NCBI GenBank assembly: GCA_023151255.1
Contig: JAKLJG010000002.1
Coordinates: 340,489 to 393,248 of the forward strand
DNA length: 52,760 nt
Direction: 5' to 3'
DNA from: Cyclobacteriaceae bacterium
Lineage (GTDB): Bacteria; Bacteroidota; Bacteroidia; Cytophagales; Cyclobacteriaceae
Of the stretch, positions 5,627 to 26,616 are shown piece after piece; position 1 is the first letter of the stretch, and every line of letters starts with the position of its first letter. The notes beneath the pieces are model-generated. The model had not been told where the DNA came from and did not search any database. It saw only the letters and a program-made list of their open reading frames with translations. Made by a program: the position numbers and the translations under genes.

Positions 5627-7687
5627 TTAAGCTTTTGGCAGCGAGAACCAAAAGGTACTGCCTTTGCCTTCTTCGCTATCTACCCAGATGCGGCCGTTAT
5701 TTTTCTCAACAAATTCCTTACATAGAATAAGGCCCAGGCCGGTGCCTTTTTCGTTTGCAGTACCCCGCGTGCTGTAGGGATTGATTTTGTCGAACAGCAT
5801 TTTACGTACTTCAGCCGACATGCCTATACCGTTATCTTTTATGGAAACAACCCACTCGTTATTTTTTTCTTCAGCCCCGATAACGATTTCTCCGCCATCG
5901 TTGGTGAACTTTAATGCGTTGGTGAGCAGGTTCCGGATAACCAGGTTAATGGTGTTGCTGTCCGCCAGGGCATAGGCTACCGGTGAAACGTTGTTGATTA
6001 GTTTAATATTTTTTTGATGTAATGAAGTGAGCAGGGCAATGTTTTCTTCGACCAAGCCGTGTAAGCTTATTCTAGTAGCCTGAAGGTTAAGTTTGTCCAT
6101 CTGCAGCAGGGTCCAGTCAAGCAGGTTGTTGAGCAGGGTGCGGGTATGGTTAAACCGTGTGCGCAGTTCTTTCAGCGCCATGGGCAATTCATCCGGTTTA
6201 ATAGCGCCTTTGTCCAGCAAATCCAACAAGCCGGCCAGGGCATTAACCGGTGATCGAAGATCATGCGAAATGATGGAGAAGAACTTATCCTTTACTTTAT
6301 TAAGTTGTTCCAGTTCTTGGCTTCGCTTTTCCATTTCTTCCTGGTGTTGCAGCAGCAGGGAGTTAATGCGTTTCCTGCGTTGGCCGCTGCGGTAGACGGT
6401 TATTAATAAAATGGCGGTTAAAGCCACAACCACTACCAGTATATTCCGGATGATTTCCTGTTTACGGATTTCTGAAGCACGCATTTGTTCAATGCGCATC
6501 AGCGAGGCAATCTGGTCGTCTTTGGCTTCGGTTTCAAAGCGCAACTGATCGCGGAAAAATTTTTGCTGCATACCCTGACTAAAGATGCTGTCTTTGAGTT
6601 GTTGGTGCTGCCGGTTATGGTAAAGGGCTTTCTGAAATTCACTTCGTTTCTCGTACAAAACTGAGAGTTGATCATGGCATTTTATCTGAAGCAGGCGAGC
6701 ATTAATGGATTCAGCAATAGCCAGTGCTTTCGCCATCAGACGTTCGGCTTCGGTAAAATTTCCCTGCCGGCCAAATACCATTCCACGGCCAAGTTCCACC
6801 TCGGCAATACCAAACTGGTTACTGGTGGCCTGATGAATATTCATGGCTGAATCATAATACGCCAGCGCTGTTTCGTACTGCTGCTTATACAAATAGGCTA
6901 AAGCAATTTTTGAAAGCGATTTCGGGAGCACTTCAACAACAATATTGCCGGGTTCGGCTTGTAATAATTTCTTGGCTTCGTGGGTAGCTTTCAACAGGTA
7001 ATGTACGGCTGAGTCATACTCGTGGATACGAAGTTTAACATCGCCCACCTCGTCCAGAAAGTATGCGTAGCCGGCTTTATCGTTTAATAAGTTGCTTATT
7101 TTATTGGAGATCCGGAGATGCCCTAAGGCCGTTTCATACTGCCCCAATTCTTTAAACACCCGGCCAAGGTTGTGCAAGGCAATGTTCATGTAAAGCGAAT
7201 CGCTGGCATTTTTGTTGCCTTGCTGCAGGATGCGGTAGGAACGGGTCAGGTAAAAATAGGCTTCATCATATACGCCCATTTCGTGGTAGTAATTGCCAAT
7301 GTTGCTGTAAGCCAGGCCAATGCTGGTGGTATCGGCCAACCCAATAGCTATCTCGAGGGCCTCTGTTTCGTTTTTGATGGCTGTTGTAAAATCACCTCCC
7401 AAACTTTTTATAAGTGCGTAGTTTTGAAGGGACTTATAGCGAAATCCTGGGATTGCTATTTTATCCGCTAACTGGATACCTTCAAGGGCGTAGGTTTCGG
7501 CTTTCTTAAAGTTGCTTAAGGCATACAGCTGAGAAAGCTCCAGTAACGTTTTAATCCTCACAGTATCATGCAGCTTATCGTTAAGGCTTTTTTCCAGGCT
7601 ATCGGTAAGCGGGTGCTGTTGGGTATAGCCGATGGTTCCGGTTACCAGTATGAGCAATAAAGTTGTATAGTACTTAAAAGGCTTCAT
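5627..7687 (-). CDS. TPR-containing sensor histidine kinase
   Basis: A 686-residue protein from the ATG at 7687 (MKPFKYYTTLLLILVTG, an exported N-terminus). Residues about 40-390 are TPR helices with typical A..Y...A patterns (SNIGNYYHEMGVYDEAYFYL, LAYLYKQQYETALAYYDSA). One membrane helix lies near 412-432, followed by a coiled coil. The HisKA domain has H475 in FFSIISHDLRSPVNALAG, and the HATPase has NLLTNALKF, DNGIGM and GTGLGL. There is no receiver domain and no regulator gene next to it, so it is an orphan kinase. The TPRs should lie outside the cytoplasmic membrane and sense a protein or peptide ligand. It precedes the PurF-like gene by 68 bp, perhaps cotranscribed. The ligand is unknown. 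Confidence 0.9.
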   Translation of the reverse strand: MKPFKYYTTLLLILVTGTIGYTQQHPLTDSLEKSLNDKLHDTVRIKTLLELSQLYALSNFKKAETYALEGIQLADKIAIPGFRYKSLQNYALIKSLGGDFTTAIKNETEALEIAIGLADTTSIGLAYSNIGNYYHEMGVYDEAYFYLTRSYRILQQGNKNASDSLYMNIALHNLGRVFKELGQYETALGHLRISNKISNLLNDKAGYAYFLDEVGDVKLRIHEYDSAVHYLLKATHEAKKLLQAEPGNIVVEVLPKSLSKIALAYLYKQQYETALAYYDSAMNIHQATSNQFGIAEVELGRGMVFGRQGNFTEAERLMAKALAIAESINARLLQIKCHDQLSVLYEKRSEFQKALYHNRQHQQLKDSIFSQGMQQKFFRDQLRFETEAKDDQIASLMRIEQMRASEIRKQEIIRNILVVVVALTAILLITVYRSGQRRKRINSLLLQHQEEMEKRSQELEQLNKVKDKFFSIISHDLRSPVNALAGLLDLLDKGAIKPDELPMALKELRTRFNHTRTLLNNLLDWTLLQMDKLNLQATRISLHGLVEENIALLTSLHQKNIKLINNVSPVAYALADSNTINLVIRNLLTNALKFTNDGGEIVIGAEEKNNEWVVSIKDNGIGMSAEVRKMLFDKINPYSTRGTANEKGTGLGLILCKEFVEKNNGRIWVDSEEGKGSTFWFSLPKA

Positions 7688-7849
7688 AACGAGGCCATTA
7701 ATCTCTAAATTCCTGGACACATAACCAATAACCTATGACATAGTTTAAAGTAATCCTACATCACCGATAGGCCCACAAATTAAACTTAATTAAATTAGCA
7801 GAGCCTTAGTTATGTAATCAGCGTTTCAAGATGGGCAAATGCAGCGGTT

Positions 7850-7865
7850 GAAATTGTTCAATTTC
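7850..7865. other. short inverted repeat GAAATTG-TT-CAATTTC downstream of murI
   Basis: Seven-base arms with a 2-nt loop, in the 207-bp gap between murI and the TPR kinase, about 30 nt past the murI stop. No T-run follows on the minus strand, so a terminator is only possible. The rest of the gap shows nothing I can name. Confidence 0.25.
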
Positions 7866-7894
7866 CAAGAAAACAATACATAGCTTTTATTTCT

Positions 7895-8707
7895 TTAATG
7901 CCATAGGGGGTGCTCCTGCAGGTGTACCTGCTGCCCGAAAAACAGGCGGGTGGAGGCTTCAAATGATGCGGTGTAGTCCGACACCAGAAACTGGTCGGCT
8001 CCGTTTACCCGGCTATTGAGCAGGCCTGCGGATAAAAGGTACTCCTTCACCGCCAGGGCAACCACTTCTGAGGAGTCCAGGATGGCAACCGGCTGATGGT
8101 TGTAATATTCCTCTATTTCTTTGCGGATAAGCGGGTAGTGGGTACAAGCCAAAATGAGGGCGCTAATACCTTTGAGTTCGGGTGCTGATAAATACTGCGC
8201 GATTATTTCGTGGCTAATCTGATTATTGAAAAAACCTTCCTCAATCATTGGGGCCAGCAACGGGGTGGCCAGTTGATGCAGGGCAATGCCCTTGTTGGCT
8301 TCATCAATCTTGCGTAAATACACACCGGATTGCACCGTGCGCTTTGTTCCGATAAGGCCAATGGCTGCCTTAGTAAAAGTTGAAGCAACCCGGTTAATCA
8401 TCGGGTCAATTACGTTGATGATTTTTACCCCGCGTACATATTCTTTAAGCAGTTCATAGGCAGCCGAACTGGCCGAGTTACAGGCAATCACAATGAGCTT
8501 ACAATCTTTTTTGAGCAGTACATCGGCAATGCGAACCGAGTAGGCCTGGATGGCTGCTTCGGATTTATCGCCATAGGGTAGATGTGCAGTATCTCCGAAG
8601 TAAATTAACTGTTCGTTGGGAAGCAGCTCTTTAATGGCATGGGCAACGGTCAGGCCTCCGATACCACTGTCAAAAATACCAATTGGGTTGTTGGGTGAAA
8701 CGGACAT
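7895..8707 (-). CDS. murI: glutamate racemase
   Basis: A 270-residue cytoplasmic enzyme that interconverts L- and D-glutamate, supplying D-Glu for the peptidoglycan stem peptide. Visible motifs are IGIFDSGIGGLTVAHAI at the N-terminus, the first catalytic cysteine C76 in IACNSAS, and the second, C188, in LACTHYPLI. Length is normal for the family. The ATG at 8707 sits directly after the T-run of a terminator-like hairpin belonging to the upstream gene. The region where a ribosome-binding site should lie is therefore the hairpin stem. No separate murI promoter was identified. Confidence 0.97.
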   Translation of the reverse strand: MSVSPNNPIGIFDSGIGGLTVAHAIKELLPNEQLIYFGDTAHLPYGDKSEAAIQAYSVRIADVLLKKDCKLIVIACNSASSAAYELLKEYVRGVKIINVIDPMINRVASTFTKAAIGLIGTKRTVQSGVYLRKIDEANKGIALHQLATPLLAPMIEEGFFNNQISHEIIAQYLSAPELKGISALILACTHYPLIRKEIEEYYNHQPVAILDSSEVVALAVKEYLLSAGLLNSRVNGADQFLVSDYTASFEASTRLFFGQQVHLQEHPLWH

Positions 8708-15650: not shown

Positions 15651-16252
15651 ACGAAGGCCGATTTTCTTCGAAGGCGCTGGAAGATTTCCGTTTGATTGAC
15701 GAGGCGGTGAATAATAATGACGACCAGGCCTTTGCTAAGCTGATGCAACGCTATAAACGCCCGGTGTACCACATGATTTTAAAGATGGTACGCAATGTTG
15801 ACGATGCCGAAGACCTTACCATTGAGTCGTTTGCCAAAGCATTCCGCAGCCTGCACCGGTTTAAGAAAGATTTTACCTTTTCTACCTGGCTGTTTCGTAT
15901 TGCTACCAATAATACCATTGACTACATCCGAAAAAAAAGACTCAATACGCTGAGCATTGACAACACGTATACCGACAGCGATGGCGATTCGGTTTCGCTT
16001 GATGTGGAAGACGAAAACCTGAATCCACAGGAAGTAACCATTAAAGCGCAGAAAGAAGAATTGATGCAGGTGTTTGTGGATAAACTTCCACCCAAGTACC
16101 AAAAGTTGGTACGCATGCGGTATTTTCATGAATTGTCATACGAAGAAATTGCCAAAGAGCTGGAAGCGCCCCTCGGCACGGTGAAGGCACAATTGCACCG
16201 TGCCCGCGAACTGATGTACGAGATGGTTAAAAACAAGCGCGACCATATTTAA
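15638..16252 (+). CDS. ECF-family RNA polymerase sigma factor
   Basis: A 204-residue sigma-70 family regulator. Region 2 has AFAKLMQRYKRPVYHMILKM, VRNVDDAEDLTIESFAKAF and FSTWLFRIATNNTIDYIRKKR. An acidic linker follows (about residues 110-130), then region 4 with LPPKYQKLVRMRYFHELSYE and IAKELEAPLGTVKAQLHRAR. No anti-sigma gene follows. It is sandwiched between the glycosyltransferase (13-nt overlap) and rsmG (TAATG overlap), so it appears to be expressed as part of a housekeeping-like operon. Its target promoters are unknown. Confidence 0.93.
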   Translation: MDELDEGRFSSKALEDFRLIDEAVNNNDDQAFAKLMQRYKRPVYHMILKMVRNVDDAEDLTIESFAKAFRSLHRFKKDFTFSTWLFRIATNNTIDYIRKKRLNTLSIDNTYTDSDGDSVSLDVEDENLNPQEVTIKAQKEELMQVFVDKLPPKYQKLVRMRYFHELSYEEIAKELEAPLGTVKAQLHRARELMYEMVKNKRDHI

Positions 16253-16902
16253 TGATCACTGAAATCCGTTTGCACAACGCGGCTATCATATTTCATTATT
16301 TCCCGGAACTTTCCGGAAATCAAAAGGCACAATTCAACAGCCTGTATGATTTGTATAAAGAGTGGAACGAAAAAATTAATGTTATTTCACGCAAGGATAT
16401 CGGTAACCTCTACACCCACCATGTGCTGCATTCGCTGGGTATTGCAAAAGTTATTTCGTTTAAACCGGGCGCCCGTATTCTGGATGTGGGTACCGGTGGC
16501 GGCTTTCCCGGCATACCGCTTGCCCTAATGTTTCCGCAGGTTCAATTTGATTTAATTGATTCCATCGGGAAAAAAATTACCGTGGTTAACGCGGTTGCAC
16601 AAGCCCTGGAGTTAAAAAATGTAAAGGCTATGCAAACACGGGCCGAGCAGGTAACAGGCCGTTATGATTTTGTGGTAAGTAGAGCGGTAACCCGGTTATC
16701 GGAGTTTTACGGATGGGTGCATGGAAAAATAAAACAGCAGTCGGTGCATGAACTGGAAAACGGTATACTTTACCTGAAGGGTGGCAACCTCGAAGATGAA
16801 CTAGCCGAGTTGAAAAGACCATATTCAGTTTATCAACTGCACGATTTCTTTAGCGAAGAGTTCTTTGAAACAAAAAAGGTGGTGCATATTCCGATGAAGT
16901 AA
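16252..16902 (+). CDS. rsmG: 16S rRNA (guanine-527-N7)-methyltransferase
   Basis: A 216-residue GidB/RsmG enzyme that methylates G527 of 16S rRNA using SAM. The N-terminal YKEWNEKINVISRKD block, HVLHSLGIAK, and the SAM loop ARILDVGTGGGFPGIPLAL are all diagnostic, as is VVSRAVTRL later on. Length is normal. The ATG overlaps the stop of the sigma gene by one base (TAATG). The stop is only 4 bp from the convergent stop of the secreted dehydrogenase gene. Confidence 0.96.
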   Translation: MITEIRLHNAAIIFHYFPELSGNQKAQFNSLYDLYKEWNEKINVISRKDIGNLYTHHVLHSLGIAKVISFKPGARILDVGTGGGFPGIPLALMFPQVQFDLIDSIGKKITVVNAVAQALELKNVKAMQTRAEQVTGRYDFVVSRAVTRLSEFYGWVHGKIKQQSVHELENGILYLKGGNLEDELAELKRPYSVYQLHDFFSEEFFETKKVVHIPMK

Positions 16903-16906
16903 AGCG

Positions 16907-19576
16907 CTACCTGGCTTTTACAAATCGTTTTGTTTCATTGCCCATTCTGAAGAGATATAAACCCGGTGACAGGCCGGCTATACCCTGTTCAATAACAAAA
17001 TTTTCCTGGCCAATTCCTGAACTCACCGGCTGACCGGTAAATGTACTGATGGTCCACCGGGTTGGTACTTGAAAACCGGATTGAACGGTAAGCTGGTTGG
17101 TAGTAATAGTAGGATAGATATTCAGATTTCCTCCGTGACCAGGCGTGCCCGGATTTTCAATACCCGTTATAGGAGCCGAATACAATTGCGATTGCGGTAT
17201 AATTTGTTTTGGTATCAATGATGATTTCCATAGCAACTTCATTACGGCATCACCGCCATCTTCAAAAAATTCGAGTTTTATCGGATATAGTTCGCCTGCC
17301 TGCAGGTTCATGGTACTGCTCCATTCGGTGGCAGCCTGGGGTACCCACCGGTCGATAATCAGAAAGTGATTTATCCATAACCGAACACCGTCATCACTCA
17401 GGGTATAAAAAGTGTAGGTGTCGGTAAACGGTGGTTGTATAAAGCCTTCCCAGCGGGCCGTGAAATTGTTGTTTTGAATGGTACCGGTAAGGGGCGAACC
17501 GGCTCCCCAATCAAAATTAATTACCGGGTCAATACGTGTTAAATCAGCCGGCAGAAAAAATGTGCGAAACTGGTTAAAGTACTGTCCCCGCAAGCCATCA
17601 CCACTTCCCAATGGCACCTGGGTGAATTGAGCAGTAAATGAAACAGGATCAGCCGGAGCATTAAAGCTAAAAGCCCGTTCCCGGGCCGGATCACTCCATT
17701 GAGTGAACGTGAAAAGGTCTGCACCTGCAAATTGCAGTACAGGCGCCTCCAAGGTGCGGGTAACGCCAATTACACTCAGCACCGATTGTGGAGCAGGCTT
17801 CGGCTGGCCGTCAACATAAACCGTAAGGCCGGGTGGCACCGTGTTTATGATGAAGGCTGTTAATTCGGGATGAACATCCTGATAAACTGTTTTGCTTAGT
17901 CCTTCGCTATCCGTGGCGGTAAGGTAAATACGGTACCATACGTTGTAGTCTGTTTCCCCAATCCGCGGCACTTCGTATGTGCCTGATGAAACACCGCTGA
18001 CAGGTTGCATTGCCGGATGGGTATGATCGTTGTGATGAAAATCAATTTTCCAGGCAAGCTGCAAAGCGGGAATTGGTCCGTCTTCCGCATCGTTGGCCAG
18101 CCCACTAAATAAAATCGATTCGCCCGCCCGATAAAGGATGCCTGCAGTTGGTATAAGTATCTGGGGTTGTGGGCGTGTGTTGGCGGTTACCTGCAAGGTT
18201 GCCAAGTTGCTGATGACTGTGCCGAAGGCATTGGTAATTGTGCAACGAAAGGTGGATCCGTTATCAGTAAGTTGGGCTGATGGAAATGTATAGGTGAGGT
18301 CCTCAGCGCCTGGAATAGCAACACCATCTTTTTGCCACTGCACGATCATGGGTGTAGCACCGGAAACGGAAACCGTAAACACAGCATCTTCCCCCACCGA
18401 GACCAACGTTGATTGCGGATGACTTCCGATAAAAGGTTCGCCACTGCCGGTGTACTCCACCTTCCATAACGATCCGTCTGGTGTACTGGTGTTGTCACCG
18501 GGTGAGCCGCCCCCAAAACCTGCCCGTTGCAGGTAATACAGGGCTCCGGTACGATCCACCGCCATGGCCAAGGGGCGGTTAATACCTGTTGCAAAAGGTA
18601 AGGGCAAACCGCCCGCGGGATCTATCTGCCGGATGTAACCGGCACAGTAATCGGCATAGAAAAATTTTCCAACATAGCCTGCAGGAAATTGCGGAGTTTG
18701 CGGATTGTAAAACGCTGCCCCTACTATAGAGCACCCGTCTGCGTGGCTATAGGCATAAAATGGGTCCTGGTAATTTGCAGGCGGGGTTTCGGTGGTACGA
18801 TATCCTTCAATCAGCGGCCAGCCGTAGTTTTTGCCAGCTTGTACATGGTTAATTTCTTCCCAGTTGCTGTTGCCCACATCGCACGCAAAAATTTTTCCGG
18901 TACCGGGCTGAATATCCATCGAAAATGGATTGCGAAAGCCCAATGCGTAGATCAATTTGTTTATTCCGGTATAGGTCGGATCATTAATAAATGGATTATC
19001 ATCAGGCACGGTACCATCCGGGTTCATGCGCAGTACTTTGCCAAGCAAACTGCTTTTTGATTGTGCCAGCGAGGCGTTGGCGCCATCGCCAGTGGAAATG
19101 TAGAGTTTACCATCGGGCCCGAACACCATGTCGCCACCGTTATGGATGCTTCCGGCCATCGGTTCAAGCTGAAGTAACACCACTTCGCTGCCGGGCAGCG
19201 TTGAGTTACCGTTGGCCGTGAACCGGCTTACGCGGTTGCGGTTTGAATTTTTTTCGGTGTAGTAAACATAGTAATAGTTGTTCAGTTCAAAGTCCGGGTC
19301 GAGCACCAGGTGGCCCAGGCCCCGCTCATTAAAGTTATCTACCTGGTTTTCGATGTTCAGCATTACCGAAGATGTTAACGCATCATTCTCAACAACCAGT
19401 ATTTTACCGCTTTTAATGGTAATTAAAACTCGCTGATCAGGTGTTACAACCAGATCGGTCGGGTCAAGGTTGGCAGCTACTTCCCGGTTGATGAACCCGG
19501 TTGGAAATTGCTGCGCCACGGCCTGCCATGAAACAAGCAATGAAATAATGAGCCAGTATTTTTTAAAGGCGTTCAT
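16907..19576 (-). CDS. secreted GSDH-family (PQQ sugar dehydrogenase-like) protein with Ig, PA14 and T9SS sorting domains
   Basis: An 889-residue multidomain protein. Signal peptide MNAFKKYWLIISLLVSWQAVAQ, then a glucose/sorbosone dehydrogenase-type six-bladed propeller (about 25-375; HNGGDMVFGPDGKLYISTGD, GFRNPFSMDIQPGTGKIFA). An Ig-like domain follows (about 385-465; VQWQKDGVAIPGAEDLTYTF), then a domain with a DAEDG motif (about 470-570). A PA14 domain lies at about 655-790 (GLRGQYFNQF, YTFYTLSDDGVRLWIN). Last comes a C-terminal sorting domain (about 815-889; NLNIYPTITTNQLTV to LSPGLYLFRMGNETKRFVKAR) of the type exported by the T9SS. It probably oxidises sugars or binds glycans at the cell surface; the cofactor is not proven. 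Its ATG overlaps the plsC stop by 4 nt. Confidence 0.9.
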   Translation of the reverse strand: MNAFKKYWLIISLLVSWQAVAQQFPTGFINREVAANLDPTDLVVTPDQRVLITIKSGKILVVENDALTSSVMLNIENQVDNFNERGLGHLVLDPDFELNNYYYVYYTEKNSNRNRVSRFTANGNSTLPGSEVVLLQLEPMAGSIHNGGDMVFGPDGKLYISTGDGANASLAQSKSSLLGKVLRMNPDGTVPDDNPFINDPTYTGINKLIYALGFRNPFSMDIQPGTGKIFACDVGNSNWEEINHVQAGKNYGWPLIEGYRTTETPPANYQDPFYAYSHADGCSIVGAAFYNPQTPQFPAGYVGKFFYADYCAGYIRQIDPAGGLPLPFATGINRPLAMAVDRTGALYYLQRAGFGGGSPGDNTSTPDGSLWKVEYTGSGEPFIGSHPQSTLVSVGEDAVFTVSVSGATPMIVQWQKDGVAIPGAEDLTYTFPSAQLTDNGSTFRCTITNAFGTVISNLATLQVTANTRPQPQILIPTAGILYRAGESILFSGLANDAEDGPIPALQLAWKIDFHHNDHTHPAMQPVSGVSSGTYEVPRIGETDYNVWYRIYLTATDSEGLSKTVYQDVHPELTAFIINTVPPGLTVYVDGQPKPAPQSVLSVIGVTRTLEAPVLQFAGADLFTFTQWSDPARERAFSFNAPADPVSFTAQFTQVPLGSGDGLRGQYFNQFRTFFLPADLTRIDPVINFDWGAGSPLTGTIQNNNFTARWEGFIQPPFTDTYTFYTLSDDGVRLWINHFLIIDRWVPQAATEWSSTMNLQAGELYPIKLEFFEDGGDAVMKLLWKSSLIPKQIIPQSQLYSAPITGIENPGTPGHGGNLNIYPTITTNQLTVQSGFQVPTRWTISTFTGQPVSSGIGQENFVIEQGIAGLSPGLYLFRMGNETKRFVKAR

Positions 19577-20328
19577 GACTTAACTGGTTGTAAATCCGTA
19601 ACATGCTCCTGCAGTAATCCAAGCATAGTTTGATAGCAATGTTCTTTCAATAGAGAAACATCACCGGGTTGGTACGTGTTTACTGCGATTTCGGTACCGG
19701 CAACAATTTTTATTATACCGGGGCGTATGCGCAGTTTACCCGGTGGCATTAGCTTGCCGGCACCAATAACCACCAGCGGTAAAATGGGTGTTTGGGTATC
19801 AATGGCAATGCGAAAAGCGCCATCTTTAAAGGGCTGCAGCATTTCATTGGTTCTGTTCTGCGTCCCTTCGGCAAAAATCAGCATCGAGATTCCTTTATTT
19901 AAAATTCGTTTGGCAAATTCTATACTCTTCTTCCTGCTTTCAGGATTACTCCGATCAACCACTACGGTAGCTGCTTTTACAATAAATCCGAAAACAGGAA
20001 TTTTCAACAACTCTTTCTTTGCAATCGGGCGAAACTCCCCGGGAATGATCAGGCGGATGCCCGGTATATCCAGGAAGGAAGTGTGGTTGCTTACGAAAAT
20101 ATATGCCTTACCGCGCTGGATGTTTTCCTTACCGTAAAGCTCATACCGGATAAACGTAAGCTGACTGAAAATCCACGACCACAGCCACAGAAAGTTGTAG
20201 CCAATCCACGTATACCGCACACCCATCAAAAAGGGCAACAAAATTCCCGGCAACAGGATGATCATAAACACACTGAATACCAGGATAACCCAGCCGGTGT
20301 AAATTTTCTGTACAATTTTGTTCAGCAT
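19573..20328 (-). CDS. plsC: 1-acyl-sn-glycerol-3-phosphate acyltransferase
   Basis: A 251-residue PlsC-family enzyme that acylates lysophosphatidic acid to phosphatidic acid on the inner membrane. Two N-terminal membrane segments (VILVFSVFMIILLPGILLPF, YNFLWLWSWIFSQLTFI), the H-x4-D motif in SNHTSFLD, and the FAEGTQNRT block are present, followed by PILPLVVIGAGKLMPPG. The gene is upstream of the secreted dehydrogenase and overlaps its start (ATGA), so the two share a transcript despite unrelated roles. Confidence 0.93.
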   Translation of the reverse strand: MLNKIVQKIYTGWVILVFSVFMIILLPGILLPFLMGVRYTWIGYNFLWLWSWIFSQLTFIRYELYGKENIQRGKAYIFVSNHTSFLDIPGIRLIIPGEFRPIAKKELLKIPVFGFIVKAATVVVDRSNPESRKKSIEFAKRILNKGISMLIFAEGTQNRTNEMLQPFKDGAFRIAIDTQTPILPLVVIGAGKLMPPGKLRIRPGIIKIVAGTEIAVNTYQPGDVSLLKEHCYQTMLGLLQEHVTDLQPVKS

Positions 20329-20367
20329 TTGGATAAACCTGAAAAGTAAAAAAAGTTACGGATAGTC

Positions 20368-20397
20368 TTTGTTGGCAGGGCGGGTTCTTCTAATTTG
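20368..20397 (+). promoter_or_regulatory. candidate promoter of the CHAT operon
   Basis: TTTG (20368-20371), a 19-nt spacer and TAATTTG (20391-20397). The -7 box is one base short of TAnnTTTG. The ATG is at 20419, giving a leader of about 15 nt. Confidence 0.4.
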
Positions 20398-20418
20398 GAC
20401 AATTAAACTCTCTTGTGT

Positions 20419-20928
20419 ATGAAAAAAATAACCGGCCTTTTCGTTTGCCTTTTCGCAGTTTCCGTGCTGGCTTCGGCCCAAAGCGAGGCCCCTCCCAAAC
20501 GACCTGACAACATCGGGGTTTCTGATTTTGACGGATTCAAAAACAACTCGTTCGACATTCTGGATGAATCCACCCGCCTGAAAAACGATGCTGCCCGCAT
20601 TGACAATGAAATTAAAGGGGGTGTACTGGCCTCGATGACCGTGGACAAAATCCGTCAGGATATTAAAGCCCTGCGCGGCATCAGCGAAGCTTCGCAGGCC
20701 CTCACACAAAAAATTGGTGACCTTGATGAACAAGGAAAAGCGCTGCTTTCGAATGCCAAAAATGTAAATCCCCGCACCAAAGCCCCTGCGGCTACCAACA
20801 ACACCAATAAATCAATCAAAGGATTGGAAGTAGCCCGCAAAAACCTGGATGCTACTGCATCGCTGGTTAAAGCCAATACCGATTTACTGGTTAACGAACT
20901 GAAGTCGCGCGGAGAAAGTATTGATTAA
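20419..20928 (+). CDS. small exported helical protein, partner of the TPR-CHAT protein
   Basis: 169 residues from the ATG at 20419. Signal peptide MKKITGLFVCLFAVSVLASA, then QSEAPPKRPDN. The mature part is almost wholly helical and coiled-coil-like (STRLKNDAARIDNEIKGG, RQDIKALRGISEASQALTQK, GLEVARKNLDATASLVKANT), interrupted near residues 115-130 by a Pro/Ala/Asn/Thr linker. There are no cysteines in the mature part and no enzyme motif. Its stop overlaps the ATG of the CHAT gene by one base (TAATG), so the two are made together. By analogy with other CHAT systems it could be a substrate, inhibitor or anchor of the protease; that is inference. I do not recognise the family. Confidence 0.8.
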   Translation: MKKITGLFVCLFAVSVLASAQSEAPPKRPDNIGVSDFDGFKNNSFDILDESTRLKNDAARIDNEIKGGVLASMTVDKIRQDIKALRGISEASQALTQKIGDLDEQGKALLSNAKNVNPRTKAPAATNNTNKSIKGLEVARKNLDATASLVKANTDLLVNELKSRGESID

Positions 20929-23750
20929 TGGCATCAATCATGCGATGTGCCGTATTGATTTTCCTGATTGGAATTTTGTCTGGCGGTTATGCGCAAGACA
21001 TCTGGGGCGAACTGGGTAAATCACTGGCAAAAGAAGGCGGTAAAGCCGGGGCTAAGCAAAAGCAGGCGCTTGATTCCATCGACTTTCAGTTTGCTATATC
21101 GGTAAACGAAAATGCCGGCTTCTTCGATATTGAGCAGAAGGGTGAAGGAACCTCACGGCTGTTGTATGCCCTGCGCGAAGAAGCGGATAAAACCCTCGTT
21201 GAGAAAGCGCGCGACTCCCTTCAAACCGCCATTTCGTTTTATGAACTGCGGCAGTATAAACTGGCGGAAGAAAATTTTATTGCGGCCAAAAATTTTATGG
21301 AGCGCAATGGCCTGACTAGTGAAATGGTGTACCTGCGTGCGCTCACCAACTTAGGTCTCGTTTATCTGGCTCAGGGTAAAATTTCGGAAGCTGAACAGTA
21401 CATTACACAATGCCTCAATTACAGTCAGCAAACACTTGGTAAGAAAAGTGCGGCCTATATAGCTAACCTCAACAACAAGGCCAAACTCGATCAATCGCAA
21501 GGAAAATACAACGAAGCCGAAAAACAGTTCGATGAAGCTCTTGCACTCAACGAAGGTGTATTTGGCGAGGGCATGCAAAAAGCCATTTTGCTCAACAACA
21601 AGGCCATGCTCCTGCAATCCATCGGCCGGTATGCCGAAGCAGCTGATTTGATGAAGAAGGCCATGGCCTCTTCAACTGTTGCCCCCAAAAAAGCTTTGCA
21701 GGGAAAAAAATCATTTGATAACCGGAAGTTTCAGGCAAACCTGGCGTTCATTTACCAACTGTCGGGTAAGTACACAGAAGCCGAGACCAACTTTCTTGAG
21801 ATCAAAAAGGTTTTTGACAACCGCAAGCAAACCGGGAACGCGGAGTATGCGGGCTTGTTGAACCAACTTGGCATTTTGTATATCCAGATGGGGAAGCCTG
21901 AAAAGGTGGAAGAGTTGCTGAAAAAGTCGCAGGAGGTTTACAAGAAACGGTTCACCGAGCAAAACATTTACTACGCCAAAGTAACCAACGACCTGGGTAA
22001 CTTTTACCGGATGAGCGGGCGCTACCCGGAGGCTGAAAAGCAGCTGGATAAAGCCTTGTCTGTTCGGGAATCGTTGCTGGGCATCAACCATCCGGATTAT
22101 GTAAACACAAAAGAAAACCTGGCTATCCTGTACTGGAAGTCCGGGCGCATTAACCAGGCCTACATGGCTTACCGGGATGTAATGGACAAAACCATTGACT
22201 TCATTAACCGGTACTTTCCACCCATGAGCGAAGCGGAGAAAACCAGTTACTGGGATGTAACCGCGCCCCGCTTCCAGCGCTTTTTCAATTTCGCCATCGA
22301 AGCCAGCGTAGAGCTGAACTATATAACCCAGGATTTTTTCGATTACCAGATGGCCACCAAGGCGCTGTTGCTCAACTCCACCAACAAGGTGAAGAACGCC
22401 ATCCTGGCCAGCAACGATAAGCAGTTGATTGACGATTACCTGCGCTGGCTGGATAAAAAAGAACAACTGGCCCGCCTGTATTCGTACTCCAAAGAGCAAC
22501 TAAAAGAACAGAAAATTGATCTGTCCTCGCTGGAGCGCGAAGCCAATGCTATGGAAAAATCCTTGTCGGAGCGTTCATCCGATTTCTCTTCGGGTTACTC
22601 AACCCAAAAAATCAGTTATAAGCAGATACGCGATCTGCTGGCCGACAATGAAGCCGTGGTGGATATTGTTCGGGTACGGGGCTTCAGCCAGGACTTTACA
22701 CCGGATGCCAAATACGCGGCCCTTGTGCTGTTGAAAAATCAGGAGTTGCCTAAACTGGTGGTGCTGGAGAATGGCGCACAACTGGAAACCCGGTATGCAA
22801 AGTATTACTCTACGGTTATCCAAAAGCGCATGCCCGATGAATTTTGTTACGACCAGTACTGGGCGCGCATCGACCCCGAACTGGCCGGTAAACGGATGAT
22901 CTACCTTTCGCCCGATGGCGTGTACAATCAGGTGAATTTAAACACACTAAAAAAGCCGGATGGGGACTACCTGGTTAACCGGTACGACTTTGTGCTGTTG
23001 GGTAATGCACGCGATTTGATTGAACTGAAGGCGCGTAAAGTTGCCGCCCTAAAAAAGGACGCGTTCTTACTGGGCTTCCCCGACTACCAGACAGATGATG
23101 TTCCTCCGTTACCCGGAACAAAGGTGGAGCTGGATGGCGTATCAAGAGTATTGAAGGCATCCGGCTACCAGGTTACGCAATACATGGAGCGCAGCGCCAC
23201 CGAAAGCAACATAAAAAAACTGAAGAGCCCGGCCCTCGTGCACATCGCTACGCACGGGTATTTTCTCAAAGATGTGGATGAATCGGGCGGTTCGGTGTTT
23301 GGCGTAAACGCGGAGAATGCTTCGAACAACCCCTTGTTACGGTCGGGCCTCATCCTGGCCGGAGCCGGGAAAGCCATTGAAGGAACAGGCGGTGTCGATA
23401 TGACCAGCAACGACAACGGCATATTAACCGCTTACGAAGCCATGAACCTGAACCTGGAGCGAACAGGTCTGGTTATTCTCAGCGCGTGCGAAACCGGCTT
23501 GGGCGATGTAAAATCAGGTGAGGGTGTGTACGGGTTGCAGCGCGCCTTTCTGGTTGCCGGTGCCGATGCGCTGATTATGAGTTTGTGGAAGGTGGATGAC
23601 GAAGCCACGCAATTGCTGATGACCAACTTTTACACCAACTGGATTAAACTCAATAACAAACAAAAAGCCTTTAAGCAGGCCCAGCTTCAGCTTATGGCCA
23701 AATACAAGGAACCCTACTACTGGGGTGCGTTTGTGATGATGGGGATGTAG
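20928..23750 (+). CDS. exported TPR-CHAT domain protein (caspase-like)
   Basis: A 940-residue protein with a signal peptide (MRCAVLIFLIGILSGGYAQ from the internal Met5). About 350 residues of Kinesin-light-chain-type TPRs follow (LTNLGLVYLAQGKISEAEQY, NNKAMLLQSIGRYAEAADLM, NDLGNFYRMSGRYPEAEKQL). A helical linker comes next, then a C-terminal CHAT domain from about residue 640. The expected dyad is intact: H776 in HIATHGYF and C854 in LSACETGLGD, followed by GVYGLQRAFLVAGADALIMS. CHAT domains are clan CD proteases related to caspases and separase. Export would place this protease in the periplasm or outside, unlike the cytoplasmic TPR-CHAT of CRISPR systems. It is coupled to the small helical protein upstream. 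Substrate and role are unknown. Confidence 0.9.
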   Translation: MASIMRCAVLIFLIGILSGGYAQDIWGELGKSLAKEGGKAGAKQKQALDSIDFQFAISVNENAGFFDIEQKGEGTSRLLYALREEADKTLVEKARDSLQTAISFYELRQYKLAEENFIAAKNFMERNGLTSEMVYLRALTNLGLVYLAQGKISEAEQYITQCLNYSQQTLGKKSAAYIANLNNKAKLDQSQGKYNEAEKQFDEALALNEGVFGEGMQKAILLNNKAMLLQSIGRYAEAADLMKKAMASSTVAPKKALQGKKSFDNRKFQANLAFIYQLSGKYTEAETNFLEIKKVFDNRKQTGNAEYAGLLNQLGILYIQMGKPEKVEELLKKSQEVYKKRFTEQNIYYAKVTNDLGNFYRMSGRYPEAEKQLDKALSVRESLLGINHPDYVNTKENLAILYWKSGRINQAYMAYRDVMDKTIDFINRYFPPMSEAEKTSYWDVTAPRFQRFFNFAIEASVELNYITQDFFDYQMATKALLLNSTNKVKNAILASNDKQLIDDYLRWLDKKEQLARLYSYSKEQLKEQKIDLSSLEREANAMEKSLSERSSDFSSGYSTQKISYKQIRDLLADNEAVVDIVRVRGFSQDFTPDAKYAALVLLKNQELPKLVVLENGAQLETRYAKYYSTVIQKRMPDEFCYDQYWARIDPELAGKRMIYLSPDGVYNQVNLNTLKKPDGDYLVNRYDFVLLGNARDLIELKARKVAALKKDAFLLGFPDYQTDDVPPLPGTKVELDGVSRVLKASGYQVTQYMERSATESNIKKLKSPALVHIATHGYFLKDVDESGGSVFGVNAENASNNPLLRSGLILAGAGKAIEGTGGVDMTSNDNGILTAYEAMNLNLERTGLVILSACETGLGDVKSGEGVYGLQRAFLVAGADALIMSLWKVDDEATQLLMTNFYTNWIKLNNKQKAFKQAQLQLMAKYKEPYYWGAFVMMGM

Positions 23751-23760
23751 GGCACCAGGC

Positions 23761-23904
23761 TATTGACAAAGGTTTTGCGCCTGGCGCAGTGGCGGATTTC
23801 GGAGCGCAAAAATTGTCAATACACCAAAAAAGTTGATGCGAGGTAGAATGTTCAATTAACCACGTCACCCGCTATTGAGCCAAACCCGTGTTAGCGGTTC
23901 GGGC
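23761..23904 (-). repeat. attC-like repeat, copy A
   Basis: Read on the minus strand it begins with CCGAACCGCTAACAC, 54 nt after the stop of the 128-aa ORF. It passes through CAATAGCGGGT, then GAAATCCGCCACTGCG and GGCGCAAAACC. The last two blocks match copy B (GAATTCCCGCCACTGC, TGCGCAAACC). Inside it, TATTGACAA+TTTTGCGC and GCGCAAAA+TTGTCAATA form a hairpin (23761-23821) that may also end transcription of the CHAT operon, whose stop is at 23750. The 14-mer GTGTTAGCGGTTCG (23888-23901) recurs exactly in copy C. Confidence 0.6.
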
Positions 23905-23957
23905 TTCTTCTATCGTGATTTTGTTTCGGTTTTTGTGATTGTCATTTTTATTGTCAA

Positions 23958-24344
23958 TTAGGCAAAATAGTCCACAAAATATTTGTGCTTGAATAATAAT
24001 GTTAATATAGCTGTGTATGTCACTAACTCTGCAATCATCGCAAAGTACTTTGTCGGGCTTGTCATAAAACCAAAGGTCTCAATGACACAGATTGTAAAAA
24101 GCATAGTATATGTTGCAAGCAGAAACTCAGGAGTTTTACTCCATTGCGTAAAATAACCAAGCAGAAATCCTGTCGAGGTAATAATTACAGAACCCCAATG
24201 AATTGGGAGTAACCATTTTGGAAAGTCAGGATTTGTGTATGAAGTCCAGGGAACTTTTGTAGAAATCAATTCTATCATGCCACCGGTCGACCAAACGAAT
24301 AGAAAAATGTGTAGTAAAACCAAAGCGTATCCAACGTATTGCAT
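23958..24344 (-). CDS. small four-helix membrane protein, cassette-borne, unknown function
   Basis: 128 residues with four hydrophobic segments (YVGYALVLLHIFLFVWSTGG, PIHWGSVIITSTGFLLGYF, LATYTMLFTICVIETFGF, IAELVTYTAILTLLF). I do not recognise the family. It lies in an AT-richer segment unlike the flanking core genes and is followed on its own strand by repeat copy A. This fits a mobile cassette gene. The ATG is at 24344. No promoter is evident. Confidence 0.7.
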   Translation of the reverse strand: MQYVGYALVLLHIFLFVWSTGGMIELISTKVPWTSYTNPDFPKWLLPIHWGSVIITSTGFLLGYFTQWSKTPEFLLATYTMLFTICVIETFGFMTSPTKYFAMIAELVTYTAILTLLFKHKYFVDYFA

Positions 24345-24473
24345 AGTGCGTTTATTTTAAGATTCCGATGTCATACCGATTAGCCACTTGTATATTGCCT
24401 GTTTGTCCAGGAGTTACATTTCTTTCGTTGCTGCCGAAAAGTTGTATTATAAAGTCCATTCGTTTCTGTTTAG

Positions 24474-24487
24474 GTGTTAGCGGTTCG
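24474..24487 (-). repeat. attC-like repeat, copy C (end only)
   Basis: The 14-mer GTGTTAGCGGTTCG is identical to the end of copy A at 23888-23901 and begins 7 nt past the stop of the DUF1905 ORF (reading minus). The rest of the 149-bp gap up to 24345 is not clearly alignable to A or B, so this copy is degenerate or truncated. Confidence 0.45.
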
Positions 24488-24493
24488 TTGTTT

Positions 24494-24793
24494 TTAAATC
24501 CACACAATAGTTTTAATGTTTTTGCCCGTTTTTATGTTTTCTCTTTTTCGTATGTCTGCCTTTAACGGAAGTAAATATGCTTTATGTTTTGTGTCATACC
24601 AAATGGCGGTTTCCCATTGACTGTTTCCGATTTTAGCAGTTGCTTTTAGTCGTCCCCAACCCTCTTCTTGCCACTTCAAATTTTCTCTTATTTCGGTCGA
24701 TATTTCTGTCGGAAGTGAAACAAAGTACCAACCATTAGGTGCTGCGTACTGCCACGTTTTTGCGGTAAATTCATATTTAATTTTGCCATTCAT
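24494..24793 (-). CDS. DUF1905 domain-containing protein
   Basis: 99 residues matching the DUF1905 pattern: KYEFTAKTWQYAAPNGWYFV, then LPTEISTEIRE, EEGWGRLKATAKIGNSQWET and IWYDTKHKAYLLPLKADIRK. The domain is small and beta-rich, and its role is unknown. This is a normal stand-alone length. The ORF begins at ATG 24793 and is followed by repeat copy C, the same layout as its neighbours, so it is probably cassette-borne. Confidence 0.85.
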   Translation of the reverse strand: MNGKIKYEFTAKTWQYAAPNGWYFVSLPTEISTEIRENLKWQEEGWGRLKATAKIGNSQWETAIWYDTKHKAYLLPLKADIRKRENIKTGKNIKTIVWI

Positions 24794-24890
24794 TTTTTAT
24801 TTGTCGGTTGGTTTGTCAAGCGGAAAGTGTTGCTATTCCCGTGATAACTGACTCTATTTTTATCTTATCCTTCATTGTACAAACAAATGC

Positions 24891-25071
24891 ATGTTAACGG
24901 TTTGCGCATAAGCAGTGGCGGGAATTCGAAGCGCCAAAAAATGTCCGTAGGGGAATGTTTAGCGCGACCAGTCGATCCTGTCCACCGTGACCAGACGTAA
25001 TTTGAAAACGAAACTACAAATAAACACGAAAACCCGCCATTGCAAATAGCTATTGTTGGCTGCTGTGCGCC
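24891..25071 (-). repeat. attC-like repeat, copy B (about 180 bp)
   Basis: This fills most of the 324-bp gap 24794-25117. Read on the minus strand it starts GCGCACAGCAGCCAACAATAGC, then GCAATGGCGGGT, a variable middle, GAATTCCCGCCACTGC and TGCGCAAACCGTTAACA. The GCAATGGCGGG/CCCGCCACTGC arms (25032-25042 and 24912-24922) form an imperfect inverted repeat. The outer ends carry GCCAAC and GTTAAC, reminiscent of the AAC...GTT ends of integron attC sites but not a strict match to RYYYAAC/GTTRRRY. It starts about 45 nt after the stop at 25118. Confidence 0.6.
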
Positions 25072-25117
25072 ATTCACAGTTCCATTCCATTTTTGCCGTC
25101 AATTGGGGAAATGAAAA

Positions 25118-25762
25118 TTATTTTGTCAAAATGTAATTCAAAGCTATCGTGTCCTTGAGTTGTTTCAAGTCGTATTCATTTAGTCCATAGCCAATGTAGT
25201 CTACCAGTGCTAACCACCAAGTTCCGTACTCTTGTCGGTAAGGGTCTATTTTTTTACTTTTTTCTTCAACGATGATTTTAAGACTTTCATAAATATTGTG
25301 AACGACAAATCCACCGTGTCCATCGTCAAGTGAACTTCCATAGTTAAACTGGTTTTCAAGTCTGTCAGTTGAGCGAAATATAGAAAGTTCAAGTGTGTCA
25401 CCTACTTTATATTTTTTTGAAGATGACATGTCGGCACTATGGATATCAAGAATTGAAATTACTTTATTAACCAAATCTTTGTCGACTTTGATAGGCCTAG
25501 AATAAGAAATATCAATCCATGCGGAGCTTGTATGTTTTTTGTCCCCGTAATTTTTAAATGTCTCAATTAATTTGGGTACCAATTTGTATTGCAAATCTTC
25601 AATTGGTTTTCCCTTGTCGAACTGATTCAATCGCCTTACTTCAACAGCAATTGATTCATCAATAAGTAAGTCTGGCGGTCGATTTCCTTTTGGTTCATAA
25701 CGAACTGTCCCGTAGCCGCGGTTTGAAAAATATTCAAATGCAAGTTCTTCCTCTCTCTTCAA
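25118..25762 (-). CDS. cassette-borne protein with a possible PD-(D/E)xK nuclease motif
   Basis: 214 residues beginning with TTG at 25762; a stop codon directly precedes it, so no longer form exists. The N-terminal part FSNRGYGTVRYEPKGNRPPD followed by LLIDESIAVEVRRL resembles the core of restriction-endonuclease-like folds: D31, nine residues, then E41-V-R43, with Arg where Lys is usual. The C-terminal part is helical and rich in Lys and Tyr. I do not recognise a named family. It is followed by repeat copy B on its own strand, so it is probably the first unit of the cassette array. The nuclease idea is only an inference from the motif. Confidence 0.7.
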   Translation of the reverse strand: MKREEELAFEYFSNRGYGTVRYEPKGNRPPDLLIDESIAVEVRRLNQFDKGKPIEDLQYKLVPKLIETFKNYGDKKHTSSAWIDISYSRPIKVDKDLVNKVISILDIHSADMSSSKKYKVGDTLELSIFRSTDRLENQFNYGSSLDDGHGGFVVHNIYESLKIIVEEKSKKIDPYRQEYGTWWLALVDYIGYGLNEYDLKQLKDTIALNYILTK

Positions 25763-25884
25763 TTATTTACTCTGTTGTCTCGAGGCGCATTGCCACTAAC
25801 ATCTTGCTACGTGCAGAGCATATACTCCATTATAAAATTAGCTAAATGCTTTTTTATCCGGCATACCCTTAGTCAGAGCAGCAC

Positions 25885-26616
25885 TTACCCAATTTTACCC
25901 ATCCTCAAAAAAACAGGAAACATAACCTCCAGCTTGTCTTTCCACAGCGGGCTGATTTTTTCCATAACTTCCAGTACAGGGTTAAATCCTTTCTTCTTAA
26001 TATACTGCTGCGTAGCCGACCAGGTGCCCAGGTAGCCGGCAAATTCTTCTACTGTCCAGTTTACTTTAATGGAAAATGCAGGCGACTTAACTTCCTCAAA
26101 AGGAAATGGAATGGGTTGGTACTGTTCTTCCACCAGTTTTCGCGCAGCATCCCAGTAAGGCCCAACGGTTTCGCGGTAAAATTTCAGAAAATGGAAATCA
26201 ATTTCCGGGTTAATGGAACAATGCGAATACCCCCACACGGCCAGCCACGCTCCGGGCTTTGAAGTACGGTTTACTTCCCGGTAAAATGCATCCAAATCAA
26301 ACCAATGCAATGCCTGGGCTACGGTTATCAGGTCAAACGTTTTATCGGGGAAATCATTTTTTTCGGCAGGCTGAACGGAATAAAGGATGTTGTCAGCTTT
26401 ATTGGCGTGTTCCAACTGCTGCGGGCTGATGTCGGTGGCAAAAACTTTTTCAAACTGTGTTGCCAATACGCGGGCTACCTGCCCGTTGCCGGTAGCACAA
26501 TCCCACGCGGCATCAAAGGTTTTTAAATGACCAAAAATAAACCGGTAAAGTTCATCCGGGTAGGTTGGCCGGAAGGTGGCGTACTGTTTGGAGTGGCCAG
26601 AAAAATAGTCTTTCAC
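25885..26616 (-). CDS. class I SAM-dependent methyltransferase
   Basis: A 243-residue protein with a Methyltransf_11-type fold: AWDCATGNGQVARVLATQF (SAM loop), ATDISPQQLEHA, and VAQALHWFDLDAFYREV. The N-terminus YFSGHSKQYATFRPTYPDEL is typical of the YcgJ/trans-aconitate methyltransferase-like group. The start is GTG at 26616, which overlaps the stop of the ureohydrolase gene by 4 nt (GTGA). The substrate is unknown. It marks the return to core-like sequence after the cassette segment. Confidence 0.88.
   Translation of the reverse strand: MKDYFSGHSKQYATFRPTYPDELYRFIFGHLKTFDAAWDCATGNGQVARVLATQFEKVFATDISPQQLEHANKADNILYSVQPAEKNDFPDKTFDLITVAQALHWFDLDAFYREVNRTSKPGAWLAVWGYSHCSINPEIDFHFLKFYRETVGPYWDAARKLVEEQYQPIPFPFEEVKSPAFSIKVNWTVEEFAGYLGTWSATQQYIKKKGFNPVLEVMEKISPLWKDKLEVMFPVFLRMGKIG

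What the first reader, a model, noticed from the sequence alone, without database searches (positions are those of the whole stretch)
23751..25884. Cassette-like array: three minus-strand ORFs each followed by an attC-like repeat
Seen: three unrelated small ORFs (four-helix membrane protein, DUF1905, possible nuclease), all on the minus strand, each followed 7-54 nt past its stop by a related repeat. Copies A and C share the exact 14-mer GTGTTAGCGGTTCG. Copies A and B share TTTGCGC, GCAGTGGCGG and TTCG-AGCGC blocks in the same order. Copy B has an imperfect inverted repeat and AAC/GTT-like ends. Known: integron cassettes have ORF-then-attC units in one orientation. Inference: this is a cassette array sitting directly after a CHAT operon in otherwise core DNA, with no integrase in the window and sites that do not strictly fit RYYYAAC/GTTRRRY. 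It may be a distinct, undescribed recombination family of Bacteroidota.
Basis: partly seen in the sequence, partly recalled or inferred. Interest (0 to 1): 0.75.

Follow-up and report, generated by a model that had tools for sequence, protein, structure and literature searches.

The report
Relic of an unusual integron-like cassette array
This stretch is a worn remnant of a gene-cassette collection that relatives of this bacterium keep in arrays of dozens, next to a recombinase that resembles the known integron enzyme but lacks the part thought essential, so it looks like a second kind of integron.

Summary
Sites A and B belong to one family of attC-like sites (E 7.5e-36 and 2.3e-33 with profiles built without the window copies). 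"Copy C" is only a half-site. The window is an eroded three-gene cassette cluster, and its genome has no matching integrase.

Relatives carry long one-directional arrays; one has 79 filtered sites in 81 kb. Each unit's first bases are the reverse complement of its own end: 161 of 185 units match at 6 or 7 of 7 positions, mean 6.02 against 3.07 in shuffles. In 27 of 27 near-identical unit pairs the next unit differs, and identity breaks at G|TT. This is integron-type cassette structure.

Arrays lie downstream of a codirectional tyrosine recombinase: in 80 independently found loci, 42 of 42 site matches are downstream, none upstream. These recombinases form the sister group of IntI, lack its ~40-residue insertion, use sites mostly without extrahelical bases (188 of 261, against 0 of 31 classical sites), and carry a HARP-like N-terminal domain (moderate evidence). 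A sister species holds different cassettes at this locus; another relative is empty. Recombination is inferred, not shown.

The parts
24893..25060 (-). Site B: attC-like site (long type, about 165 nt) after the first cassette ORF; left box GCCAAC, right box GTTAAC
   Evidence: profile without the window copy E=2.3e-33
23763..23897 (-). Site A: attC-like site (about 123-nt type) after the third cassette ORF; left box CCGCTAAC, right box altered (CTT in place of GTT)
   Evidence: profile without the window copy E=7.5e-36
24476..24483 (-). Site C: left half-box only (CCGCTAAC); rest of the site missing
   Evidence: homology of the third unit with G005 begins a few bases beyond it
25798..25800 (-). 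Possible start (GTT) of the first cassette; weak, own-end match only 3/7
   Evidence: by eye
25118..25762 (-).
24494..24793 (-). Second cassette ORF, 99 aa, DUF1905
   Evidence: E=1.1e-20
23958..24344 (-). Third cassette ORF, 128 aa membrane-protein-like; 76-88% identical relatives at other loci near A-type sites in G003, G005, G007, G014
20928..23750 (+). Flank: TPR/CHAT gene, convergent with the cassettes
   Evidence: synteny
25885..26616 (-). Flank: methyltransferase gene
   Evidence: synteny

Best explanation
The window holds an eroded, integrase-less cluster of gene cassettes from an integron-like system of class Bacteroidia. The system most likely works as follows. A tyrosine recombinase, sister to IntI but without the IntI-specific insertion, excises one-gene units as circles and inserts them at G|TT, either between sites of an array or at an attI-like site just after its own stop codon. 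Each unit ends in an attC-like hairpin site whose two end boxes come from the same unit once it is circular. Because the enzyme lacks the I2 insertion and the sites mostly lack extrahelical bases, site recognition must use other cues; the best candidate is the HARP-like N-terminal domain, a fold found in fork-remodelling enzymes. Shown by sequence: array structure, unit boundaries, linkage, absence of the insertion, rarity of bulges. Inferred: catalysis by this enzyme, a folded single strand as substrate, the role of the HARP-like domain, attI.
For: Own-start/own-end complementarity: 161 of 185 distinct units match at 6 or 7 of 7 positions (mean 6.02; shuffled starts 3.07, sd 0.09, largest 3.37 in 2000 shuffles; next unit's start 3.13) (13 regions of 9 genomes). 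27 near-identical unit pairs, each with a different next unit: identity 0.97 and 0.99 inside, 0.54 and 0.39 outside, break at G|TT (a few pairs share the site before). Orientation: 262 of 263 filtered palindromic sites on one strand per array. Linkage: 42 of 42 R1 matches in 80 loci are downstream of the recombinase on its strand; a model-free finder gave 29 sites in 296 kb downstream and 0 in 485 kb upstream. Spacing from catalytic Lys to HxLRH: 65-70 in the 20 of 22 array-linked rows that my motif parsed, 107 in the 10 of 31 IntI rows parsed (IntI1 among them), 71-76 in 9 of 10 Xer rows; the IntI insertion is skipped in the alignment to 2a3v. Tree with the insertion columns dropped: I2-less clade 94/84, IntI clade 100/99, both together against Xer 100/99. 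Arm bulges: none in 188 of 261 sites, at least one in 31 of 31 classical sites by the same finder. N-terminal domain: profile finds 4o66 (SMARCAL1 HARP) first, E=3.8e-4; Pfam HARP in 8 of 52 proteins.
Against: No recombination was observed. 24 of 185 units score below 6/7 and 13 have their longest ORF on the other strand. No site was found in 57 of 80 loci nor near 27 of 49 I2-less rows; some end at a contig edge, some are other elements. Support for the I2-less clade is below the starred level (94/84), and the tree tool warned of long branches. Foldseek puts 4o66 second but at E=0.18, not significant. The window's own units fail the complementarity test, one unit in contig C11 of the own genome scores 2/7, and the own genome has no such integrase.
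Confidence: 0.8

Rival explanations
1. An ordinary CALIN (cluster of attC sites lacking an integrase): these are classical attC sites moved by a classical IntI acting in trans or formerly present, and the neighbouring recombinase is incidental.
For: R-box layout, G|TT boundary and one-ORF units match classical cassettes. Classical IntI is common elsewhere in the phylum: 105 of 395 genomes over the cut-off.
Against: 0 of 59 genomes (own included) carry an IntI above the cut-off although several hold large arrays; of the same-class genomes in the table only G095 has a best E below 1e-100. Sites lie only downstream of the I2-less recombinase. The sites mostly lack the bulges of classical sites.
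Confidence: 0.08
2. Host XerC/XerD, not the array-linked recombinase, moves the units, as in Xer-dependent mobile modules; the linked gene has another task.
For: XerC/D-like genes are present in the four genomes looked at, also where the linked enzyme is absent; the presumed attI is dif-like by eye.
Against: Sites sit only downstream of the linked recombinase in 80 loci; the linked enzyme keeps the pattern of catalytic residues in 20 of 22 rows by simple motifs; the units are bounded by G|TT as in integrons.
Confidence: 0.07
3. Dispersed palindromic repeats (REP- or MITE-like) that merely fall between genes and are not recombination sites.
For: Palindromic, repeated, intergenic; single scattered copies occur.
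Against: One orientation per array (262 of 263), own-start/own-end complementarity of the intervening unit, breaks at G|TT between copies of one unit, linkage to one side of a recombinase.
Confidence: 0.03

Closest known systems
Integrons with IntI and attC (chromosomal arrays; integrase structure 2a3v, Vibrio cholerae)
   Same: Arrays of mostly one-gene units in one orientation, hairpin sites with RYYYAAC/GTTRRRY-like boxes, G|TT boundary, tyrosine recombinase at one end; 2a3v is the best sequence and fold match in PDB
   Different: No IntI-specific insertion (spacing 65-70 against 107), few or no extrahelical bases in the arms, array downstream of and codirectional with the integrase, extra HARP-like N-terminal domain
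CALIN (clusters of attC sites lacking an integrase; term of IntegronFinder, PMC9024848)
   Same: The window: two sites, no integrase nearby or in the genome
   Different: Sites are of the I2-less type; I could not run IntegronFinder to see whether it would call them
attC-like 140-bp tail of aph(3')-IVb in Riemerella anatipestifer (PMC13148043, section 11 read)
   Same: Same phylum; gene with an attC-like folded tail that entered a chromosome without homology
   Different: No recombinase is named there (0 occurrences of recombinase or integrase); arrays and unit rule not described in the passages I saw
'Integron-like' tyrosine recombinases without a fully conserved insertion (PMC8138268, passages)
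   Different: No cassette arrays are tied to such enzymes in the passages I saw

Membership tests
Integron (IntI/attC) | Tyrosine recombinase with the IntI-specific insertion (I2) | tested here: not met
   Spacing 65-70 against 107; alignment to 2a3v jumps from chain residue 188 to 242; 0 of 59 genomes over the TIGR02249 cut-off
Integron (IntI/attC) | attC with extrahelical bases in the arms | tested here: not met
   0 bulges in 188 of 261 sites, 1 in 62, 2-3 in 11; classical 31 of 31 have at least 1
Integron (IntI/attC) | Imperfect inverted repeat with R-type end boxes around each site | tested here: met
   alignments of 31 and 24 copies; boxes fit RYYYAAC/GTTRRRY only loosely
Integron (IntI/attC) | Cassette bounded at G|TT, circular unit rebuilds its site | tested here: met
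Integron (IntI/attC) | attI next to the integrase | tested here: inconclusive
   dif-like repeat then G|TT after the stop in several loci, by eye
Integron (IntI/attC) | Integrase-catalysed recombination of the folded bottom strand | not testable with these tools
   Only folding was computed: bottom strand more stable in 120 of the first 150 I2-less sites, 13 of 31 classical
Integron (IntI/attC) | Common promoter Pc driving the array | not tested
   no call
CALIN (window) | At least two attC sites without an integrase | tested here: met
   sites A and B; no array-type integrase in the own genome; but the sites are of the I2-less type
HARP domain (PF07443) | Sequence and fold match of the N-terminal domain | tested here: inconclusive
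   4o66 first at 3.8e-4; Pfam HARP in 8 of 52, best 7.6e-5, DUF5710 in 7 of 52; predicted order strand-strand-helix-strand-strand-helix-strand; Foldseek E=0.18

The most novel reading that the evidence does not exclude
Bacteroidia carry a second kind of integron: a HARP-domain integrase, sister to IntI and without I2, moves cassettes with mostly bulge-free hairpin sites. It would be either the surviving form of the state before I2 and extrahelical bases arose together, or a separate solution to recombining folded DNA. It may be common (a recombinase matching this profile in 196 of 395 class genomes) and may be a source of tet(X)-type cassettes.
Probability: 0.6. Interest if true: 0.95.

Novelty: new variant of a known kind. 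Interest (0 to 1): 0.87.

Why it matters
I2 and extrahelical bases are held to be what lets IntI recombine folded single-stranded sites, and their joint origin has been called a chicken-egg paradox (PMC4792948 and PMC7790495, passages read). A living system with cassette arrays but mostly neither feature makes that question directly testable. It could also explain why a survey reports very few integrons in Bacteroidetes (PMC9024848, passages read), and it offers a candidate enzyme for the homology-independent gene uptake reported in that phylum (PMC13148043, section 11 read).

Tried and rejected
A strict pattern search of the own genome found nothing (0 of 1); homology searches replaced it. 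Rfam gave no match for 23000-26500. Site-finding by three rounds of blast drifted: of 399 candidates 56 were on the wrong strand, and a palindrome filter dropped 136 in all. After that filter only site B of the window is kept, because site A ends in CTT. The filter favours gap-free arms, so the bulge comparison was repeated with one gap-tolerant finder for both kinds of site, and with homology-picked sites (202 of the 259 scorable with none; 84 of 343 too weak to score). The GTT end was imposed when anchoring sites, so 261 of 262 GTT is no evidence; the complementarity test leaves those three bases out. The strict finder gave 0 sites in 125 kb of background (both strands), but that background contained the window, so it misses worn sites such as A and B. 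The first tree kept the insertion columns and was rebuilt without them. Strand folding gave only a mild bias for I2-less sites and none for the classical ones. Classical loci for one search were fetched on the 5' side of intI only, and 15 loci were scanned, not all of which gave sites, so nothing is claimed about their other side. In one search my motif failed or mis-hit in 21 of 31 IntI rows and 2 of 22 array-linked rows.

Searches for an existing description: (open-access PMC only, no preprints); two searches were on tet(X) and HARP. In the listings and passages I saw, none described an I2-less integron; that is not proof of absence.

Full report
WHAT IS THERE. On the minus strand, between a methyltransferase gene (25885-26616) and the convergent CHAT gene (20928-23750), lie three small ORFs. 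Sites B (about 25060-24893) and A (about 23897-23763) follow the first and third; after the second only a left half-box remains (24483-24476). Profiles built without the window copies find A at 7.5e-36 and B at 2.3e-33, and the A profile also finds B at 8.6e-7, so A and B are one family. The exact 14-mer shared by A and C is by itself close to chance.

RELATIVES. 23 of 59 genomes searched, the own one included, match the 2.1-kb stretch. Covariance models from 31 A-type and 24 B-type copies hit 45 and 36 of the 59 (lower bounds, since at most 54 and 45 candidates were scored per genome; training copies match by construction). The copies form long arrays: after a palindrome filter, 79 sites in 81 kb in G001 (median spacing 808 bp), 55 in 67 kb in one G003 array, 39 in 82 kb in G014; 262 of 263 filtered sites lie on one strand per array.

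UNIT TEST. For 185 distinct units between successive sites (at most 2.5 kb apart; 13 regions of 9 genomes), the bases after G|TT were compared with the reverse complement of the unit's own left box: mean 6.02 of 7 positions, 161 units at 6 or 7. Shuffled starts give 3.07 (sd 0.09, largest 3.37 in 2000); the next unit's start gives 3.13. So a circularised unit rebuilds its own site. Among 208 units there are 27 near-identical pairs, each with a different next unit; identity drops from 0.97/0.99 inside to 0.54/0.39 outside at G|TT. The longest ORF is on the array strand in 172 of 185. These are integron-type cassettes. Against: 24 of 185 units fall below 6/7 and 13 have the longest ORF reversed.

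RECOMBINASE. The IntI model TIGR02249 found no match above its cut-off in 59 genomes, but strong split matches beside arrays, in the array's orientation. The best solved relative by sequence is the V. cholerae integron integrase 2a3v, aligned with a jump from chain residue 188 to 242; it is also the best fold match of the AlphaFold model (pLDDT 86.7). Spacing from the catalytic Lys to HxLRH is 65-70 in 20 of 22 array-linked rows (2 not parsed), 107 in the 10 of 31 IntI rows that could be parsed, and 71-76 in 9 of 10 Xer rows. Catalytic motifs are complete in 20 of 22 by simple patterns. With the insertion columns dropped, 49 I2-less rows form one clade (94/84), 31 IntI rows another (100/99), and both together part from Xer (100/99).

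LINKAGE IN AN INDEPENDENT SET. One scan of named genomes with a recombinase profile gave 80 loci, none used in the site models. All 42 R1 matches are on the recombinase strand and downstream of it, in 19 loci. A model-free palindrome finder gave 29 sites in 296 kb downstream (15 loci) and 0 in 485 kb upstream. The union is 23 of 80 loci; others end at a contig edge or may use other site types. Named carriers with sites include Arundinibacter roseus, Flavobacterium aciduliphilum, Algoriphagus ornithinivorans and Winogradskyella ursingii. A Chryseobacterium plasmid also has the enzyme and three sites found by the model-free finder.

SITE STRUCTURE. With one gap-tolerant finder and own-complement validation, classical sites near IntI in the same phylum all have bulges in the arms (31 of 31, 21 with three), whereas I2-less sites have none in 188 of 261, one in 62, two or three in 11. 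I2 docks extrahelical bases in IntI (PMC7790495, PMC4792948, passages). Here the enzyme lacks I2 and most sites lack the bases.

N-TERMINAL DOMAIN. About 80 residues, predicted order strand-strand-helix-strand-strand-helix-strand. A profile of 29 such domains finds the SMARCAL1 HARP structure 4o66 first (E=3.8e-4); Pfam HARP matches 8 of 52 proteins (best 7.6e-5) and DUF5710 7 of 52. Foldseek ranks 4o66 second but at E=0.18. HARP is described as five strands and two helices, present in SMARCAL1 and T4 UvsW (PMC4666394, one passage). A role in recognising the folded site is my inference.

THE LOCUS. Distance between the CHAT and methyltransferase ends: 2134 bp in the window, about 140 bp in G003 (empty); other genes and no site matches in G001, G006, G007. 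In the sister G005 (CHAT 93% identical) the same place holds other units, among them a pair that looks like a PemK-type toxin and antitoxin, with start GTTGTGGCGCATGG and end complement GTTGTGGTGCGTGG, and an A-type site (read by eye). G005 is split across contigs here, so its far junction is not seen. Relatives of the window's third ORF sit at other loci near A-type sites. So the stretch did not arrive as one fixed block. The own genome has no enzyme of this type: best score 175 bits, an Xer-like gene, against 493-495 in G001 and G003. It does hold other site clusters; two units in contig C10 average 6.5/7 in the complementarity test, one in C11 scores 2/7.

DISTRIBUTION. The enzyme profile hits 196 of 395 sampled genomes of the class (112 of 196 genera) at E<=1e-75; not all need be array enzymes. 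Classical IntI is over the cut-off in 105 of 395 sampled phylum genomes, but of the same-class genomes in that table only G095 has a best E below 1e-100.

WHAT IS KNOWN. Seen as passages only: PMC9024848 (only In0 in an earlier survey, later a complete integron in Salinibacter), PMC2426708, PMC9668308, PMC8138268, PMC8352920, PMC8618304, PMC7530245. PMC13148043 (passages and section 11) reports homology-independent insertion of a gene with an attC-like 140-bp tail in Riemerella and leaves the mechanism open. Eight searches aimed at this system showed no description of it in what I saw.

VERDICT. It works like an integron. Two features that define the IntI/attC family were tested and not met, so I do not file it as a canonical integron but as a sister variant. 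The window is an eroded remnant of it.

Noticed in passing
L171 (NZ_CP041290.1) 6004-7950: On an Acinetobacter plasmid, tet(X3) sits directly after a truncated relative (called xerD in papers) of the I2-less integrases and is followed by what looks like the left half of an A-type site, cut short; tet(X3) may be a cassette of this system. Described only.
   Followed up: partly
L061:9938-11835: Three copies of one ~468-bp unit lie in tandem close to the G001 integrase, each with a short (~82-nt) site; possibly amplified cassettes.
   Followed up: no
L096, L097, L098, L087, L088, L192: Another clade of I2-less recombinases, without the N-terminal domain, is followed at once by what reads like an IS91-type transposase (annotated IS91 family in the Myroides record L192); probably a different element.
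   Followed up: no
L119:3300-7392: At the window's locus, sister genome G005 carries a cassette with a PemK-like toxin and antitoxin, next to a multicopper-oxidase-like gene (by eye).
   Followed up: partly
L132 and L134, after the membrane-protein gene: Collapsed sites reading GCCCGAAACCGTTAG look like deletions between short direct repeats inside a site: a possible decay route.
   Followed up: no
L091, L185, L201, L202, L205, L183, L184: Just after the recombinase stop there is a dif-like inverted repeat followed by G|TT, also in loci where no site of type A or B was found, hinting at further site types (by eye).
   Followed up: no
L168 (NZ_CP041688.1) 16100-21000: A long palindromic stretch recurs at several unit junctions of the Chryseobacterium plasmid array.
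   Followed up: no
L192 (NZ_CP037428.1) 5001-5123: The only plasmid records matching an A-type site in a distant blastn search were three from Myroides odoratimimus (3 of 72,556 records), beside a tyrosine recombinase and an IS91-family transposase.
   Followed up: no
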